Positions 14,719 to 39,343 of a stretch of 39,360 nt of DNA are shown one piece after another; position 1 is the first letter of the stretch; every line of letters begins with the position of its first letter. The notes beneath the pieces are model-generated. The model searched no databases. It worked only from the letters and a program-made list of their open reading frames with translations, and was not told the DNA's origin. The stretch is from an uncultured Deefgea sp. (GTDB lineage: Bacteria; Pseudomonadota; Gammaproteobacteria; Burkholderiales; Chitinibacteraceae). The translations under genes and the position numbers were made by a program. The stretch spans positions 1-39,360 of the forward strand of contig NZ_CAMTIA010000026.1 in assembly GCF_947072475.1 (NCBI RefSeq), written 5' to 3'.

Positions 14719-15999
14719 CTAAAATAAACCGTCAAATGAAAGGCTAAATACATTGGCTTTTAATGGCCCGGCCTGAGCATTGCCATCATCCCATAAGCCT
14801 TTGCCGCCATCGGCCGCGTGAATTCGATCGTATTGAAATTTGAGCGCCATTCTGGGGCGAAAATCCCAGCGAATGCCAATCGAGTAGGTCTGTTGATCGG
14901 TGTATAAACTGCCCAGAAACTGGTTTGCGCCAGCGGCTAAAGCTTGGCTTGCTGCAGCCAGCGGGGGCGGTAATGGGCCTTGCGGTAATGGCGCACGATA
15001 GCGGGCATTTTTCGACTTGGCTTGGCTGAGTGTGATATAGGGTTGAAAGGCGTCTATCCGATAGGCCGCGCTAATATATGCCCCTTCCATGTGACCATAT
15101 ATGACGGTTTCCGATTGCACGCGCCCCCATTCACCTTGCAACCACCAAGGGCCATTGTCATAACTAGCACCCAGTAATAAAAACTTGAGGCGACCGTCTA
15201 TTTTTAAATCTTGCTGGATTTGCGTCGCACTGGGCCAAAATGGGCTGAGTTGACCAAGCCCACTAGAAAGCAAATCGGTGCCTGGCACCTTGCCTTGTAA
15301 GTTAATTTGCCCAATTGAGGTGCGTAAATGAAAGTGCTCATCGCTCCATTCGAGTGAAGCGCTGGCTAAGTCATCACCATGCACTCGAAAATCACCCACA
15401 GCGCTGCGTAGCGTTGAACTAATTCGACCCATATTTCCTTTGAGCCTGATTTCGCCATCGCCCAATTGCTGGCGATATTGAATATCGGCACCGTTGTATT
15501 GAAAAAACGGGATTAAGCCATAAAAATCTTGCACTGGCCGCACCCAAGGATAGGTGTAACCCACGTTGCGAAAATCAGACAACATAAACATATCCACGCT
15601 GAGCCGGCCTGCACGGATGCTCCAATTTTCATTCGGGCGATAGCGCAAAAAAGCCCAGTCGACGGCATCTCCATTCGCGTAATCAACCCCGTCGCGGGCG
15701 GTCACTTGTAAGGCGGCACTCCATTGCGGGGTAAAATCGGCGAGTAGCTGCACACCAACGCGGCTATCGGTGATCGCTGAGGTACGGTCGTGATGGGTAT
15801 TGGATTGCGATAGGTCGCGAATATACTGGCTGGCGCTGTCATTGTGGTTAATGCCTAAGGTATAAAAACCACTGATGCTTAATCGGTCTGCAGGTTTTAC
15901 TTCGTCAATCTGAAGGTGAGGGTCTAATTCAATTTCTTCGGCAGCCGTGGCCGTGGCGGTGTACAGCATCAATATACTGAGGCATATAAAGAATTTCAC
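14719..15999 (-). CDS. Outer-membrane porin-like beta-barrel protein
   Basis: About 426 residues from the GTG at 15999, which gives VKFFICLSILMLYTATATAA as signal peptide and has CAAGG upstream. A longer form from GTG 16029 is possible. The mature protein has alternating hydrophobic strands with many Tyr/Trp and Gly/Asp turns (ISGFYTLGINHN, LQVTARDGVDYANGD, WSIRAGRLSVDMFM, YSIGIRWDFRPRMALKFQYD) and ends in a terminal Phe (SFDGLF), a beta-barrel assembly signature. It likely forms a barrel in the outer membrane. The substrate is unknown. It is the first gene of the porin / PstS-like / cyclase operon. Confidence 0.8.
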   Translation of the reverse strand: MKFFICLSILMLYTATATAAEEIELDPHLQIDEVKPADRLSISGFYTLGINHNDSASQYIRDLSQSNTHHDRTSAITDSRVGVQLLADFTPQWSAALQVTARDGVDYANGDAVDWAFLRYRPNENWSIRAGRLSVDMFMLSDFRNVGYTYPWVRPVQDFYGLIPFFQYNGADIQYRQQLGDGEIRLKGNMGRISSTLRSAVGDFRVHGDDLASASLEWSDEHFHLRTSIGQINLQGKVPGTDLLSSGLGQLSPFWPSATQIQQDLKIDGRLKFLLLGASYDNGPWWLQGEWGRVQSETVIYGHMEGAYISAAYRIDAFQPYITLSQAKSKNARYRAPLPQGPLPPPLAAASQALAAGANQFLGSLYTDQQTYSIGIRWDFRPRMALKFQYDRIHAADGGKGLWDDGNAQAGPLKANVFSLSFDGLF

Positions 16000-16105
16000 A
16001 GCACAGCCTTGGTGAATGAGTTCGGGCACCCTTTAATTTGGCTGAGGATTGGTCTGTTTTCAAGGTAAGCATTTATTTGTTTTGGTGACAGCAATGCTTG
16101 GACGT

Positions 16106-16136
16106 AAAAAAACCGACGTTCGCAAACGCCGGTTTT
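16106..16136 (-). terminator. Rho-independent terminator of groESL
   Basis: On the minus strand ACCGGCGTT pairs with AACGTCGGT around the loop TGCG and is followed by six or more T. It lies about 30 bp past the groEL stop. Confidence 0.85.
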
Positions 16137-16165
16137 GATCTTTTCTTGCCAAGGCAAGGCGGGTA

Positions 16166-17809
<1,644 letters not shown>

Positions 17810-33702: not shown

Positions 33703-34734
33703 TTAATCCTGACGAGATTCGACAATATTAAGCGCTTCTTCAATCAAGCGCCAATCGGCGTTTTTAAGCAAAGCCGCATCCGACAACATCCGCCGCCAAT
33801 GCCGAGCACCGGGCCGGCCTTGGTACAAACCTAAAATATGCCGCGCCACATAGCGTAACGGCGTGCCTGCCGCGAGCTCAGCATCGACAAAACCGCGTAA
33901 GTCTTCCATCACCGCGCGGCGCGTGGTTTCAACGTGCGGCGCACCATAAATCGCCGCATCCACTTCGCTTAAAATCCACGGATTATGATAAGCCTCGCGC
34001 CCGAGCATTACGCCATCCACATGCTGCAAATGCATTTGGCTATCGGCAATGGTGGTGATGCCGCCATTAATAATGATCTCTAGCGCGGGGAAGTCTTGCT
34101 TGAGCTGATAGGCATAAGCATATTTAAGCGGCGGAATATCGCGGTTTTCTTTCGGGCTAAGGCCTTTTAAAATCGCATTTCTGGCGTGCACAATAAATGT
34201 GCTGCAACCGGCATCGGCCACATGGCCGACAAAATCGCGAACAAAGCTGTAATCCTCAATCTGATCAATGCCGATCCGGTGCTTCACCGTAACGTCGATA
34301 CTGCACGCATCGCGCATGGCTTTAACCGCATCGCTCACTAAATCAGGTTCCAGCATCAAGCAAGCGCCAAACGAGCCCGACTGCACTCGCTCGCTAGGGC
34401 AACCCACATTCAAATTGACCTCGTTATAACCCCATTGCTCGGCCACCTTGGCGCAATGCGCCAAATCAGCCGCATTCGAGCCGCCCAATTGCAGGGCGAT
34501 CGGGTTTTCTGACGGATCAAACCGCAAATGCCGCATCGGATCGCCATGAATAATCGCCCCGGTATTTACCATCTCGGTATACAGCCAAGTGTGCTGGCTC
34601 AATTCGCGAGCGAATCGACGGTAAAAGCGGTCTGTCCAATCGAGCATCGGCGCGATGCAGAAGCGCCGAGACGGTGTAACCGTTGAGTTTGCTAGGTTTA
34701 AGTCTTGATTTGTCTGGGTTTCTATATTCGGCAT
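33703..34734 (-). CDS. dusA: tRNA-dihydrouridine synthase A
   Basis: 343 residues. Motifs: RFCIAPMLDWTDRFYRRFAR (residues 24-43), LNVGCPSERVQSGSFGACLM with catalytic Cys112, VKHRIGID, IVHARNAIL, IIINGGITT and GVMLGREAY. It reduces uridine to dihydrouridine at positions 20/20a of tRNA with FMN. The first 22 residues are not conserved, and no strong ribosome-binding site precedes the ATG. This fits a 5' end replaced by an integrated island: an integrase gene lies head to head only 101 bp away. Downstream genes on the same strand form a likely operon. Confidence 0.95.
   Translation of the reverse strand: MPNIETQTNQDLNLANSTVTPSRRFCIAPMLDWTDRFYRRFARELSQHTWLYTEMVNTGAIIHGDPMRHLRFDPSENPIALQLGGSNAADLAHCAKVAEQWGYNEVNLNVGCPSERVQSGSFGACLMLEPDLVSDAVKAMRDACSIDVTVKHRIGIDQIEDYSFVRDFVGHVADAGCSTFIVHARNAILKGLSPKENRDIPPLKYAYAYQLKQDFPALEIIINGGITTIADSQMHLQHVDGVMLGREAYHNPWILSEVDAAIYGAPHVETTRRAVMEDLRGFVDAELAAGTPLRYVARHILGLYQGRPGARHWRRMLSDAALLKNADWRLIEEALNIVESRQD
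34621..34650. other. Candidate attachment core (attL/attR) inside dusA 5' end
   Basis: The codons for MLDWTDRF (residues 30-37 of DusA) are the region where dusA-specific integrases are known to recombine. The exact crossover cannot be placed without the second copy, which must lie beyond the window. Confidence 0.4.
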
Positions 34735-34778
34735 GGCTACAGTGTTCTGCGGGTTGTCGGGGTATTGTGTTGCTTCTG

Positions 34779-34825
34779 GTGCTATTTAAGTGCTATTTTC
34801 AAGCGCTAAAAATCACGAATAGCAC
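34779..34825. repeat. Repeated GTGCTATT boxes upstream of the integrase gene
   Basis: GTGCTATT occurs at 34779-34786 and 34790-34797, and its complement AATAGCAC at 34818-34825, all within the 101-bp gap before the integrase start. They could be integrase arm-binding sites or an operator. Confidence 0.45.
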
Positions 34826-34835
34826 TGGGGTAAAT

Positions 34836-35957
34836 ATGGCTTCTATTTTACGCGTTGAAAACAAAGATGGCTCAATTTCTTTTCAAGCCCAAGTACGGCT
34901 AAGGCGTGGTGGAAAAATCGTTTTTAATGAGAGCCGAAATTTTAAGGTGCAGGGTGTTGGCGCTCGTGCCGAAGCTTTGGCCAAGCGACTCTGCGAAGAT
35001 TGGGCCGAAGCGCTCACGGAGAAAATGCAGAGTGATACCGAGCTCTATAAACGCAAACAGAGAGGCGTTACCGTAGCCAAGTTGATCGAGCGCTATATTG
35101 CATTCGTCGAGCAAGATAAAAAAATCGGTGATTCTAAACGAAGCGTGTTGGGGATCTTGATGCGCTCAAATTTGGGTGCCCTGGCATTGTCGGACCTAAA
35201 TACTGCAGCGGTTATTGGTCATTGCCGAGATCGCCGTGCGCAAGGCGCGAAACCGCAAACGATTATCCAGGATGTGATTTACCTCGGTGGTGTACTGAAA
35301 TGCGCTAAACCCTATTTTAATATAGTGGTCGATTTAGAAGAATTTGAACAAGCCAAGGTGCAGGTGCGATCACTTGGGTTGACCAGTAAATCTGCTGAGC
35401 GCGATCGCCGCTTGCAGCCGAGTGAATTGAGCGCCTTTTTAGCCGCTGCTCAAGCCACCGCACACAAAGGCTTCATCCCCATCGCCGATATCGTGCGCTT
35501 TGCGATTGCCACCGGCATGCGCCAAGGCGAAATCGTTGGGCTACGTTGGGCCGATTTAAACGAGAAAGATCGCACCATCCTCATCCGCAATCGCAAAGAC
35601 CCACAAGAAAAGCTGGGCAACAATCAAACTGTTCCCTTATTAGGTGAGTCATTTTCAATTGTTAAATCGCAAGAAAGAGCTGACGAACGGATATTCCCGT
35701 ACCATGCTGACAGTGTAAGGGCGCGTTTTGAGCGGCTGTGTGTGTTGGCAGGAATTACAGATTTAACCTTTCACGATCTGCGCCATGAAGGCATTAGCCG
35801 ACTATTTGAGCAGGGCTACCAGATTCAAGAAGTGGCCTTGGTATCGGGGCATAAGAGCTGGAAAAACTTGGCGAGGTATACGCAGCTAAGGGCGGTGGAT
35901 TTGCATCGGGAAGTGGCGGAGCCTGTGGTATTGAGCGGGCGGAGTGATCGGCGATAA
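34836..35957 (+). CDS. int: Tyrosine recombinase of the dusA-associated integrase type
   Basis: 373 residues from ATG 34836, with a GGGG site. Longer readings would run into dusA. An N-terminal DNA-binding part (VENKDGSISFQAQVRLRRGG) is followed by a core-binding domain (about 76-165) and the catalytic domain (190-355). Catalytic residues are Arg229 (GMRQGEIVGLRW), Lys254, His313 and Arg316 (FHDLRHEG), His339 (SGHKS) and Tyr348 (LARYTQL). It would insert and excise the island at the dusA site, and the head-to-head placement with dusA supports this. Integrase genes of this type mark prophages and genomic islands. No excisionase gene is seen in the window. Confidence 0.9.
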   Translation: MASILRVENKDGSISFQAQVRLRRGGKIVFNESRNFKVQGVGARAEALAKRLCEDWAEALTEKMQSDTELYKRKQRGVTVAKLIERYIAFVEQDKKIGDSKRSVLGILMRSNLGALALSDLNTAAVIGHCRDRRAQGAKPQTIIQDVIYLGGVLKCAKPYFNIVVDLEEFEQAKVQVRSLGLTSKSAERDRRLQPSELSAFLAAAQATAHKGFIPIADIVRFAIATGMRQGEIVGLRWADLNEKDRTILIRNRKDPQEKLGNNQTVPLLGESFSIVKSQERADERIFPYHADSVRARFERLCVLAGITDLTFHDLRHEGISRLFEQGYQIQEVALVSGHKSWKNLARYTQLRAVDLHREVAEPVVLSGRSDRR

Positions 35958-36029: not shown

Positions 36030-36046
36030 TGGTAAAACACTTACCA
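36030..36046. promoter_or_regulatory. Inverted repeat upstream of the HEPN-like gene
   Basis: TGGTAA, five bases, TTACCA: a perfect inverted repeat 17 bp before the start codon, in an AT-rich leader that also has an AGGGG ribosome-binding site. It is a possible operator for a repressor of the three-gene operon. Confidence 0.4.
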
Positions 36047-36063: not shown

Positions 36064-36447
36064 ATGGATGATTATAAAAGTGCTGCTGTACGGCATTTTT
36101 CTGACGCTAAGTATTTATTTGATTCAGGTAAGACTGATAATGCAGGGCATCTGATTGGTTTTGCTGCAGAGTGCGCAATAAAATATAAAATTACTACTCT
36201 AAGGCCAGGTCAAAATGCGCCGCATGGGCACTTTCCGGACATTGTTGGTGCTGCAAAAAGACACTTAGCTGGTCGTAATCCAGCTGCATTCGGTATGTTG
36301 CAGCATTTGAATGCTGGTGGGTTGGATGGATGGAATGTTAATCGCCGTTATAACCAAACTGGCGTTACAACTAGTGAAGAGCTGGCATCGTGGTTTCAAT
36401 TTGCACAGCGGCTACTGGCAACTACAGGTATTAAGGAACGTGGGTAA
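36064..36447 (+). CDS. HEPN-like small protein, first gene of an island operon
   Basis: 127 residues from ATG 36064, with AGGGG nine bases upstream. The N terminus (residues 3-42: YKSAAVRHFSDAKYLFDSGK, then DNAGHLIGFAAECAIKYKI) looks like the first helices of a HEPN domain, with a short C-terminal helix (WFQFAQRLLATTGI). The RNase motif of HEPN nucleases (Arg, four to six residues, His) is not visible, so it may be a non-catalytic HEPN. It is followed four bases later by the ATPase gene, a tight operon. Base composition is AT-richer than the neighbouring core genes. Function is unknown. Confidence 0.6.
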   Translation: MDDYKSAAVRHFSDAKYLFDSGKTDNAGHLIGFAAECAIKYKITTLRPGQNAPHGHFPDIVGAAKRHLAGRNPAAFGMLQHLNAGGLDGWNVNRRYNQTGVTTSEELASWFQFAQRLLATTGIKERG

Positions 36448-36450
36448 ATT

Positions 36451-37827
36451 ATGACAGTGTATTTTGATGACTCTCTTCGAGTTTTTGTTGCATTAGTTCA
36501 AGAGGAATGGGGCGCAAGTTTTATCTCAAACAATCTTTTTTTGAGAGATATAAATGGGCGATTGACGTTTATTATTCTGAATAATTCTAAAGATAGTGCA
36601 GAGCGAATTTCTCTTGCGGCTAAAGCTGAAGCCATTCTTGGCTCATATGTTGATAGTGATGGATTTTCAGTTGCTACACCTGAAGAGTTGTTTGATGATC
36701 GTCTTAATATTGATGCTGCACTCAAAGTAAAATTAACGATTGCACAGAATGAAGTCGAGGTGAATCTTATTGATCGACGTATGGTTGGTGCGGATTGGCT
36801 TCGTGCACCTGCCCCAAGTGCTAGAAACCCTTTGCGCTTTGTATTTGCGAGTATTAAAGGTGGTGTGGGGCGATCTACTGCTTTGTGTGTTTTAGCCGCT
36901 CATCTTGCTGCGAATGGGCTCCGTGTTTTAACTGTTGATATGGACTTAGAGGCTCCTGGCCTTGGTAATCTGCTTTTACCTGAAGGTACTTTACCAAAAT
37001 TTGGGTTGCTTGATTATTTGGTTGAGCAAGGGATAAATCCTGAGTTAGAAGATTCATTTTTCAGCGATATGATTGCATCCTCATGGTTAGGTGGCGGTGT
37101 TGGTCGAGTTGATGTGATTCCTGCTATTGGTCAGTTAAGCCTTGAGAATCCTGAAAATGTACTAGCTAAGATTGCAAGAGCATATATGGATGGTGGCATA
37201 AACGAAAATAGTAATGTCGCATATAGTTTTAGCGACCACATTAGCAAACTAATTGATATATTTGCTAAGCCATATGATTATGATGTGGTTTTGGTTGACG
37301 CAAGAGCCGGATTGCATGAAACAAGTGCTGCAGCAATTATTGGATTGGGTGCGGAGATACTTTTTTTTGGTGTCGATCAACCTCAAACCTTTTCTGGATA
37401 CGAACTCTTATTTGCACATTTAGCTAACCTTAATATTGATGATAATGACGATTGGCGTAATAGAATACGTTTTATTCATGCAAAGGCCTTAGCTGACTCA
37501 AGGAAACGTTCAGAGTTTATTCAAAAAATAGAACAATTAGCGGAGAGAACTATTTACCCTCAAGTAGCATCTAGTGTGATTGTCGACCTAAATTCTCTAA
37601 GTAGTTCTTTTGAGGTTGAATGGGATGAAAATTCTGATATCTCTGAGTCAGTAATTAATGATTTGAACAGCATTTCTGTTATTGCTATTGCTAATGATGA
37701 TCGTTTTAATACATTCGATCCAATTGTTGATCGTGACTCTCTTGGCGAGTCTGTTTATCAGGCAACATATGGTGATTTTGTTTCGGAAATAATGAATTCT
37801 ATTGCTTTGAATCGAATGGGGAATTAA
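36451..37827 (+). CDS. MinD/ParA-type ATPase with KGGVGRST loop and novel N-terminal domain
   Basis: 458 residues. Residues 1-128 form an unfamiliar N-terminal domain (MTVYFDDSLRVFVALVQEEWG and on). From 129 a deviant Walker A fold begins: SIKGGVGRST (134-143), where the usual second Lys is Arg, then TVDMDLEAPGLG (161-172), and Walker B-like VVLVDARAGLHE (279-290). The FFGVDQPQTFSGYELL segment follows. Such ATPases switch on ATP-driven dimerisation. Here the partition partner (ParB, parS) is absent, which argues against plasmid partition. I recall that databases have a KGGVGR-motif variant ATPase family. It lies between the HEPN-like and P-loop genes, with gaps of 3 and 2 bp. Confidence 0.8.
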   Translation: MTVYFDDSLRVFVALVQEEWGASFISNNLFLRDINGRLTFIILNNSKDSAERISLAAKAEAILGSYVDSDGFSVATPEELFDDRLNIDAALKVKLTIAQNEVEVNLIDRRMVGADWLRAPAPSARNPLRFVFASIKGGVGRSTALCVLAAHLAANGLRVLTVDMDLEAPGLGNLLLPEGTLPKFGLLDYLVEQGINPELEDSFFSDMIASSWLGGGVGRVDVIPAIGQLSLENPENVLAKIARAYMDGGINENSNVAYSFSDHISKLIDIFAKPYDYDVVLVDARAGLHETSAAAIIGLGAEILFFGVDQPQTFSGYELLFAHLANLNIDDNDDWRNRIRFIHAKALADSRKRSEFIQKIEQLAERTIYPQVASSVIVDLNSLSSSFEVEWDENSDISESVINDLNSISVIAIANDDRFNTFDPIVDRDSLGESVYQATYGDFVSEIMNSIALNRMGN

Positions 37828-37829
37828 AA

Positions 37830-39296
37830 GTGGATCATTCTTTAGGATTTAATGCTATAAGGCAATCTCTGTCCAAAATTCCCTCTGATCATGATGCCAC
37901 AGGTGAACATCGCCCTACAGTAAATGAAATTTACACTCCGGAACTTCATGCTTCTGCATTAGATCTTAATACGCCTGTGGTAGTAGGTGCTCGAGGAGCT
38001 GGAAAGAGTTTCTGGGCTGGAGTGCTTGAGCAAGATGATACCAGAGCTGTCGCTGCAAAATCATATCCTCATCTTGGTTTGGATAGGCTTGTTGTAAGGG
38101 CTGGATACACTGGATTTGCAACAGAGGGTGTTGTGTCGCCTAAAACTATTGATGCTAGAGTACCCAATGGCGAAGAGGAAAACTTAGCGTTTGATTTTTG
38201 GCAAGCAGTTATTATTCGTGCTGCAAGATCTGTTTTTGCAGATGAAAATTCATCTGTTAAGCAAATTATGCAAGAGTTTAGCGATCCTGAAGATGCTCAG
38301 CTCGAATTTAAAATTCTTGATAAAAAAATTGCAGAGTCAGATAAAATATTGCTTGTTAGCTTTGATGCTTTGGATACTTTGTCTAAAGATTGGAAGCGCT
38401 CCACTTTATTATTAGACGCTTTGTTTGAAGTTATATGGTCATTAAGAGTACGTCGAGCTATTCGCGCAAAGATTTTTATTCGACCAGAACAGCTAAACGA
38501 TGAGAGTTTACGCTTTATAGAAATGCCAAAGTTACGGAGTTCGTGTGTTGAGTTGAGTTGGTCCCAAGTTGAATTGTATGGGCTTTTATTTTGGCGGCTT
38601 ATCCAAACATCAAGTTTAACAACTACCAAGGCCATTAATGATTTGGCGCTTTTAGCTGGCGTACCTAAATTTGATGGAAAGGTTAATAGCCTTCGTAACT
38701 GGCCTTTAATTCGTGCTAAAGACTCACAGCAGTTTGTAATGGAGCAAATGGCTGGGCCTTACATGGGGCGAAGCAGTAAAAAAGGCGGCACTTATGATTG
38801 GCCATATAATCATCTTGCTGATGCAAAAGGAAAAGTTACTCCAAGGAGCTTTATAAAGCTTTTTGTCGAGGCAGCAAAGCATGAACCAATGGTTGAGGGA
38901 CAAGTCATTTCTGCTGAGGGGATTCGACATGGTCTTCGTGAAGCGTCGAAAGTTAGGGTTGAGCAGCTTGTGATTGAATATAAGTGGATTAAACGGGCCT
39001 TAGCTCCCTTAGCTGGTCTTACTGTGCCATGTACAGTGGATGCAATTTACGAAAGATGGAGTGTGAGTAATACAATAAATATTATATTAGCTGCGTCAGA
39101 GAACGAAGATAGTGGGTTTATGCCACCTTTTCCTATTAAAACTAGGAGATCTCATGATGAATTACTCATTGAGGCAATGGAAAAAATTGGTGTATTTTCA
39201 TTTCGTGTAGATGGGCGTATAGATATACCAGACCTTTTCCGAGTTGCTGCACGTATGCTTAAAAAAGGTGGTACTACTCCAACTAAAAGTAAGTAA
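37830..39296 (+). CDS. P-loop ATPase, last gene of the island operon, function unknown
   Basis: 488 residues from GTG 37830, with GGGG upstream and two bases after the previous stop. Walker A is GARGAGKS (residues 53-60). A Walker B-like segment, ILLVSFDALD, lies near 173-182, and a sensor-like KIFIRPEQLND near 214-224. The C-terminal half (about 300-488) is helical, without a recognised nuclease, protease or membrane motif. A winged-helix-like final region with FRVDGRIDIPDLFRVAARMLKKGG is a guess. It resembles STAND/AAA-type ATPases by layout only. A hairpin terminator follows 10 bp after the stop, so the operon ends here. Confidence 0.7.
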   Translation: MDHSLGFNAIRQSLSKIPSDHDATGEHRPTVNEIYTPELHASALDLNTPVVVGARGAGKSFWAGVLEQDDTRAVAAKSYPHLGLDRLVVRAGYTGFATEGVVSPKTIDARVPNGEEENLAFDFWQAVIIRAARSVFADENSSVKQIMQEFSDPEDAQLEFKILDKKIAESDKILLVSFDALDTLSKDWKRSTLLLDALFEVIWSLRVRRAIRAKIFIRPEQLNDESLRFIEMPKLRSSCVELSWSQVELYGLLFWRLIQTSSLTTTKAINDLALLAGVPKFDGKVNSLRNWPLIRAKDSQQFVMEQMAGPYMGRSSKKGGTYDWPYNHLADAKGKVTPRSFIKLFVEAAKHEPMVEGQVISAEGIRHGLREASKVRVEQLVIEYKWIKRALAPLAGLTVPCTVDAIYERWSVSNTINIILAASENEDSGFMPPFPIKTRRSHDELLIEAMEKIGVFSFRVDGRIDIPDLFRVAARMLKKGGTTPTKSK

Positions 39297-39306
39297 CTAT
39301 AGGTAT

Positions 39307-39343
39307 AATGCCGTTCACTTAAGCCAAGTGAACGGCATTTTTT
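39307..39343 (+). terminator. Rho-independent terminator closing the three-gene operon
   Basis: AATGCCGTTCACTT pairs with AAGTGAACGGCATT around AAGCC, followed by T's. It is identical, apart from one base in the stem, to the hairpin at 11476. It contains the GTTCACTTAA end of the MITE-like family, so another element copy may start here and run past the window. Confidence 0.8.

What the first reader, a model, noticed from the sequence alone, without database searches (positions are those of the whole stretch)
36064..39296. Unrecognised three-gene operon: HEPN-like protein, KGGVGR ATPase, P-loop ATPase
The genes are packed with 2-4 bp gaps, are AT-richer than the core genes, lie directly behind a dusA integrase and end in one terminator. 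The mix of a HEPN-like protein and two NTPases is typical of anti-phage systems, yet I cannot match it to a named one. Seen directly: operon layout and NTPase motifs. Inference: a defence role.
Basis: partly seen in the sequence, partly recalled or inferred. Interest (0 to 1): 0.82.

Follow-up and report, generated by a model that had tools for sequence, protein, structure and literature searches.

The report
Prophage-borne HEPN–ATPase defence trio (PDC-M28)
Next to the integrase of what looks like an integrated phage, this bacterium carries a three-gene unit already listed by computer surveys as a candidate anti-virus system (PDC-M28); it looks like a sensor, a switch and an RNA-cutting effector, but I found no report that anyone has tested it.

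Summary
The three genes at 36064-39296 are real, co-directional, nearly contiguous (gaps 3 and 2 bp), AT-rich, and followed by a terminator. They are not unrecognised: all three match PADLOC-DB's candidate system PDC-M28 (A 3e-22, B 1e-93, C 1.5e-115). My searches found no experimental report. Order A-B-C is conserved in close relatives and the proteins co-diverge (r 0.80-0.90). In 3 of 13 plasmid trio loci the cassette sits inside a BREX-2 operon. A is a HEPN domain lacking Rx4-6H but keeping the alternative site E36xxxK40...H56...R95Y96 in 74 of 74 aligned sequences. B is a MinD/ParA-type ATPase with arginine for the P-loop lysine (KGGVGR, 74 of 74). C is a STAND/ORC-type AAA+ ATPase resembling BrxC, RdrA and NLR cores. 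Two loci carry a HEPN gene plus a single B::C fusion. The trio lies beside the integrase at attL of a dusA-inserted element; the 27-bp attR copy, with phage lysis and tail genes, is on another contig. Likeliest mechanism: C senses, B gates, HEPN cuts RNA (abortive infection). Membership near certain, defence likely, mechanism inferred. Against: six Streptomycetaceae plasmid C homologues stand alone; no island-enrichment statistic was obtained.

The parts
36064..36447 (+). gene A: HEPN-fold protein, PDC-M28A, 127 aa; proposed RNase effector with the non-canonical E36/K40/H56/R95/Y96 site
36451..37827 (+). gene B: KGGVGR-variant MinD/ParA-type ATPase, PDC-M28B, 458 aa; proposed nucleotide switch or gate
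   Evidence: PADLOC PDLC04559 1.1e-93; NCBIfam NF047398 180.5 bits, cut-off 90; K136-GGVG-R141 in 74 of 74 aligned sequences, window included
37830..39296 (+). gene C: STAND/ORC-Cdc6-type AAA+ ATPase, PDC-M28C, 488 aa; proposed sensor and assembly platform
39307..39339 (+). intrinsic-terminator-like stem after gene C
   Evidence: 14-pair stem with T tail; pattern scan only, 4 terminator-like sites found in the region against a shuffle mean of 2.8
34836..35957 (+). tyrosine integrase next to dusA; mobility gene of the element, not part of the trio
   Evidence: Phage_integrase 3.4e-23 on ORF 34683-35957; start at ATG 34836 chosen by eye
34639..34665 (.). attL: 27 bp inside the 5' end of dusA, repeated exactly on contig C37 (C37:19117-19143)
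33703..34734 (-). dusA, the insertion target; flank of the element, not part of the trio
   Evidence: best matches in 6 same-genus genomes are 86-98% identical

Best explanation
A divergent, probably prophage-borne copy of the candidate defence system PDC-M28. C, a STAND/ORC-type AAA+ ATPase, senses an infection cue and assembles with ATP. B, a MinD/ParA-type ATPase with a K-to-R P-loop, couples C to A and holds A off at rest. A, a HEPN protein with the alternative histidine site, is released or activated and cleaves RNA, stopping the phage by abortive infection. Shown here: family membership, conserved order, co-divergence, B::C fusions beside a HEPN gene, invariant motifs, predicted folds of A and C, BREX-2 embedding at 3 loci, dusA insertion. 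Inferred: anti-phage activity, who senses, that A is an active RNase, that B restrains A.
For: PADLOC hits for all three. 87 of 89 C homologues with at least 2.3 kb upstream have A and B matches; A-B and B-C junctions lie within 30 nt in 83 of 84 and 94 of 95. Co-divergence r 0.85, 0.90, 0.80 for A-B, B-C, A-C over 66 loci, maxima of 1000 permutations at most 0.11. HEPN-like gene plus one B::C fusion protein in L143 and L172. Trio inside BREX-2 in L016, L018 and L168. HEPN alternative-site layout as described for AbiV and AF0298 in PMC3710099 (passages), and AF0298 (2hsb) among the best fold matches. C resembles BrxC, RdrA and NLR cores. Ten IMG/VR contigs carry A, B and C. Absent from 6 of 6 same-genus genomes searched.
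Against: No experiment. The canonical HEPN Rx4-6H motif is absent here and present in 3 of 74 aligned sequences, so RNase activity is uncertain. The neighbour tallies of 266 proteins list some defence families, in one to three proteins each per tally, and the same neighbours include much ordinary metabolism; there was no control, so island enrichment is not shown. Remote C relatives occur alone. L090 has C without A or B, and L059 a C fragment without them. L004, L041 and L075 have a shortened single frame matching both A and B, and L034, L037, L044 and L088 have B in two frames: decay or assembly error.
Confidence: 0.5

Rival explanations
1. Toxin-antitoxin-like module: HEPN A is the toxin and the ParA-like B (with C) its antitoxin, mainly stabilising the element.
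For: PMC3710099 (passages) proposes a HEPN (MAE_18760 family) plus ParA/Soj ATPase dyad as a TA system; the trio sits on plasmids and in a probable prophage.
Against: Pfam's only hits for gene A are HEPN PF05168 and AbiV, both below cut-off; I did not check by call how the MAE_18760 family is held in Pfam. A large conserved STAND-type ATPase is unusual for a TA pair (general knowledge). BREX-2 embedding suggests immunity rather than retention.
Confidence: 0.2
2. Defence system in which A is not an RNase but a nucleotide- or RNA-binding subunit, and the B/C ATPases act on invading DNA.
For: Canonical Rx4-6H missing (3 of 74). A's best fold matches include the sacsin HEPN. C's matches include ORC/Cdc6 and the transposition ATPases TnsC and MuB.
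Against: Five polar residues of the alternative site are invariant in 74 of 74. No nuclease family passes a cut-off in B or C; the only listed hint is a weak match of B to ZorD (E 0.057, 9 bits).
Confidence: 0.2
3. A partition or replication module: ParA-like B and ORC/Cdc6-like C serve plasmid or prophage maintenance.
For: B matches MinD/ParA families; C folds like ORC/Cdc6 initiators; found on plasmids.
Against: P-loop lysine of B is arginine in 74 of 74; named replication genes are separate on L013 and L015; the cassette sits inside BREX-2 at 3 loci; some trio loci lie on megabase genome contigs, for example L074 and L078.
Confidence: 0.07

Closest known systems
PDC-M28 (PADLOC-DB v2.0.0 phage defence candidate)
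   Same: All three proteins match M28A, M28B and M28C over nearly full length, in the order A-B-C.
   Different: The window copy is a divergent member: C scores 384 bits against 502-696 for the eight other strong class-wide hits. Probably prophage-borne, not inside BREX-2.
HEPN-T / AbiV-type HEPN with alternative histidine (PF05168, AF0298, AbiV)
   Different: Pfam scores are below the curated cut-offs; partners B and C.
HEPN (MAE_18760) + ParA/Soj dyad of Anantharaman et al. 2013
   Same: A HEPN protein encoded next to a ParA-type ATPase (PMC3710099).
   Different: Here a third STAND-type ATPase and a KGGVGR P-loop; that the HEPN families differ is suggested by the Pfam hits only.
BrxC (BREX), RdrA (RADAR), NLR/CED-4 STAND ATPases
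   Same: Predicted fold of C.
   Different: No PglZ/PglX in the operon (RADAR's deaminase and the NLR repeat domain are recalled, not searched for); the core AAA+ fold is shared very widely.

Membership tests
PDC-M28 | matches to the M28A, M28B and M28C profiles | tested here: met
   3.2e-22, 1.1e-93, 1.5e-115
PDC-M28 | three adjacent genes in order A-B-C, co-directional | tested here: met
   window coordinates; same order in relatives
PDC-M28 | embedded in a known defence system in some genomes | tested here: met
   inside BREX-2 in L016, L018, L168, 3 of 13 plasmid trio loci; not so in the window
PDC-M28 | anti-phage activity | not testable with these tools
   PDCs called putative and not experimentally validated (PMC10855318 passages); validation pending for most PDCs of the core defensome (PMC12988326 passages)
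HEPN superfamily | HEPN helical fold | tested here: met
Canonical HEPN RNase | Rx4-6H catalytic motif | tested here: not met
   absent in window A; R95 with H at +5 to +7 in 3 of 74
HEPN with alternative site (AbiV/AF0298 type) | conserved R without its H, plus a conserved H in the helix 2-3 insert and ExxxK in helix 2 | tested here: met
   E36, K40, H56, R95 in 74 of 74; helices 24-46, 59-68, 92-96; 3D distances not measured
KGGVGR-variant AAA ATPase (NF047398) | score above the curated cut-off of 90 bits | tested here: met
   180.5 bits
Sll1717 P-loop ATPase (NF047389) | score above the curated cut-off of 75 bits | tested here: not met
   69.6 bits
BREX | PglZ phosphatase in the genome | tested here: not met
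   own genome: one match at 20.2 bits, below the cut-off of 25
MNT-HEPN toxin-antitoxin | adjacent minimal nucleotidyltransferase gene | tested here: inconclusive
   no such Pfam hit among the trio or the integrase; the contig ends after the terminator, so the downstream neighbour is unseen
dusA-specific genomic island (Farrugia et al. 2015) | integrase beside dusA, att direct repeats flanking the island | tested here: met
   27-bp identical repeats at window 34639-34665 and C37:19117-19143; sibling synteny; the two ends lie on different contigs

The most novel reading that the evidence does not exclude
PDC-M28 represents a wider class of immune machines built on a 'KGGVGR switch plus STAND/ORC ATPase' core, in which a MinD/ParA-like protein with a lysine-to-arginine P-loop gates an NLR-like sensor and the effector is exchangeable: HEPN in the trio and in the B::C fusions, ORC-like or NACHT-WD40 partners in other KGGVGR proteins. 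The HEPN effector would use the alternative histidine site, making it a test case for the RNase mechanism suggested in 2013 for HEPN proteins without Rx4-6H.
Probability: 0.3. Interest if true: 0.65.

Novelty: new member of a known kind. Interest (0 to 1): 0.45.

Why it matters
The trio is spread over many bacterial phyla (record titles) though uncommon (strong C hits in 8 of 369 class genomes), tightly co-inherited and catalogued, yet I found no mechanism or experiment for it. The analysis gives a concrete, falsifiable division of labour with residues to mutate (H56, R95 in A; R141 in B; K59 in C). It also supplies a natural test of whether HEPN proteins lacking Rx4-6H are RNases, and of how a MinD/ParA-type P-loop with arginine works.

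Tried and rejected
Rejected: 'unrecognised operon' (PADLOC PDC-M28); BREX membership (no PglZ above cut-off in the genome); canonical HEPN RNase (motif absent). Rfam found nothing in the window at gathering thresholds. No hit to C among phage records nor to the trio DNA among E. coli genomes; a scan of IMG/VR with the single protein confirmed no relative, with the alignment it gave 10 distinct loci.

Led nowhere: PglZ in the genomes behind 43 loci (41 genomes, 13 with a match over the cut-off) could not be tied to trio positions because contig numbers differ from record names. The neighbour tallies show only the 25 commonest families of each set, had no control, and used a home-made gene caller; proteins over 900 aa, at contig ends or with X were left out, which biases against large defence genes. 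The first chromosome-flank probe was uninformative (464-aa gene, weak or partial matches in 2 of 6 siblings); the 217-aa gene worked in 4 of 6, of which G411 gave the close spacing; in G410, G412 and G413 it lies far from dusA. A palindrome upstream of A (36030) is noted but was not compared with relatives in detail. Paper searches for 'PDC-M28', 'KGGVGR' and 'Sll1717' gave 0 papers each; the tool says that no bioRxiv preprints are held, and the preprint that I take to define the PDCs was not read. Distances in the models were not measured. DefenseFinder models were not available.

Sampling and dropped rows: the 80 genome loci are the best of 266 relatives, not a random draw. Of 111 C matches (L001, a copy of the window, left out), 89 entered the co-occurrence count (1 window, 8 plasmid, 70 genome, 10 viral); 18 were left out for short upstream sequence (17 of these show B, A or both in what is there; L039 shows neither in 243 bp) and 4 for low score (L009, L010, L011, L059). 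Of 21 plasmid records 20 were inspected; H19, cut at the record start, was not. The motif alignments (74, 74, 82 rows, window included) hold the window and L021-L110 only; near-duplicates were removed, and I also left out broken or partial rows. Of these, A rows L063 and L088 keep E, K, H and RY, while L075 lacks RY, its frame being a short A+B hybrid; B rows L040 and L041 keep KGGVGR and L063 lacks it because its frame starts late. Calothrix B (L019) reads KGGAGR. In one search the script's start choice gives 9 nt for the window's A-B gap, where the ORF list gives 3.
Full report
What was checked. Upstream is a tyrosine integrase ORF beside dusA.

What it is. All three proteins match PADLOC-DB's candidate system PDC-M28: A 3.2e-22, B 1.1e-93, C 1.5e-115. 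B also passes the NCBIfam model for KGGVGR-variant ATPases (180.5 bits, cut-off 90), while C falls just below the Sll1717 model (69.6 of 75). PADLOC's PDC systems are described as putative and found by 'guilt-by-embedding' (PMC10855318, passages; PMC12988326, passages with abstract). The preprint behind them (doi 10.1101/2024.01.29.577857) was seen only as a citation. Full-text searches for PDC-M28, KGGVGR and Sll1717 returned no paper.

Conservation of the trio. In an even draw of 369 class genomes, 11 have a C match at 12 places; nine places are strong (380 bits or more, in 8 genomes) and three weak. Of the nine strong places, eight have B directly upstream; the ninth (L004) has a shortened frame matching both A and B. 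Five of the strong genomes were fetched with wider flanks: four show A, B and C (L148-L151) and one (L147) is cut by the contig start within B. In the wider set, 87 of 89 C homologues with at least 2.3 kb upstream have A and B matches. Of the two others, L064 has A in a longer frame outside my cut-off and L090 has C alone. The 87 include L041 and L075, where one shortened frame matches both A and B, and four loci with B in two frames. A-B and B-C junctions lie within 30 nt in 83 of 84 and 94 of 95 cases, most often a 4-nt overlap (37 and 32 cases). Distances co-vary: r 0.85 (A-B), 0.90 (B-C), 0.80 (A-C) over 66 loci; the maxima of 1000 permutations were at most 0.11.

Plasmids. Among 21 plasmid records with a C match, 20 were inspected and searched with my profiles: 13 carry the trio; one (Nostoc, L172) a HEPN-like gene plus a B::C fusion beside hsdR; six, all Streptomycetaceae, carry C alone. 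Five of these six were checked for the P-loop: G-x-x-G-x-G-K without the arginine that is invariant (R55) in 82 of 82 aligned trio-type C proteins. In 3 of the 13 trio loci the cassette lies inside a BREX-2 operon: Thiodictyon, Streptomyces NBC_01334, Sphaerotilus.

Wider relatives. In 274 class genomes the KGGVGR domain passes its cut-off at 13 places in 12 genomes: seven are trio B genes, one is a B::C fusion next to a HEPN-like gene (L143), five are other proteins. These five include a fusion to an ORC-CDC6-like ATPase (PF24389, 3.2e-79) and a 1642-aa protein that by eye carries NACHT and WD40 regions. Of the three weak C places, one is that B::C fusion and two (L152, L153) show no A or B in the 8.8 and 11 kb fetched.

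The ATPases. In B the P-loop reads KGGVGR[ST]: the first lysine, typical of MinD/ParA, is kept, but the P-loop lysine is arginine in 74 of 74. That this slows hydrolysis or makes it a binding switch is my inference from general knowledge. C has an intact Walker A (GxRGxGK, K59 82 of 82) and Walker B (D179 82 of 82). Its confident model (pLDDT 93.9) resembles ORC/Cdc6, archaeal STAND-type ATPases, CED-4 and plant NLRs, RdrA and BrxC.

The element. A 27-bp stretch of the dusA 5' end (34639-34665) is repeated exactly on contig C37 (19117-19143). In same-genus genome G411, dusA and a gene found on the low side of C37 (217 aa) lie about 8.7 kb apart, matching the 8.3 kb from the C37 repeat to that gene; this rests on one sibling. 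So C37 below 19.1 kb is most likely the old chromosome flank and C37 19.1-29.0 kb the island. The island side holds endolysin, holin, tail-fibre, DNA methyltransferase, HNH and PemK-type toxin genes. The trio thus most likely lies in a dusA-inserted prophage or prophage remnant, next to the integrase; the sequence between the two contigs is not known. Farrugia et al. 2015 report that about half of such islands (48 of 94) are prophages (PMC4482086, passages). The trio's C is absent from 6 of 6 same-genus genomes; among 61 relatives (own genome included) 5 have a match, two of them strong: the own genome and G444. Matches to the first residues of DusA far from dusA in G410 and G412 suggest other elements there.

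Mechanism. Best reading: C senses, B gates, A cleaves RNA, stopping the phage by abortive infection. Membership in PDC-M28 I hold at about 0.97, a defence role at about 0.85, and the stated division of labour at about 0.5. Rivals are a TA-like module, a defence system with a non-catalytic HEPN, and a maintenance module.

Verdict. A good observation, already catalogued as a candidate, with no experimental report found in my searches. The interest lies in the conserved three-part logic and the non-canonical HEPN and P-loop sites.

Noticed in passing
   Followed up: no
L144:5079-7919 (G047): KGGVGR ATPase fused to an ORC-CDC6-like ATPase (PF24389, 3.2e-79), a possible one-protein version of B plus a C-like partner.
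   Followed up: partly
L143:4306-7394 and L172:2869-5984: Two-gene versions: a HEPN-like gene followed by a single protein that joins B and C; the Nostoc one lies beside hsdR.
   Followed up: partly
L070 (Pseudomonas lopnurensis): Two diverged copies of the trio face each other about 1.5 kb apart.
   Followed up: no
window 36030-36046: Palindrome TGGTAA-N5-TTACCA just upstream of gene A, a possible operator.
   Followed up: no
L162-L166, L173 (Streptomycetaceae plasmids): Stand-alone C-like ATPases without A or B; the five checked (L162-L166) have a different P-loop.
   Followed up: partly
L156:14503-14889 and 15743-16759: Two integrase reading frames with nearly the same start lie on the island side of attR, the first one much shorter.
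   Followed up: no
G410:C1:2562456-2562560 and G412:C1:3348203-3348259: Short matches to the start of DusA far from dusA in sibling genomes suggest that dusA is a repeated insertion site in this genus.
   Followed up: no
L004, L041, L075: One shortened frame matches both A and B, as if the middle of the two genes were missing; deletion or assembly error.
   Followed up: no
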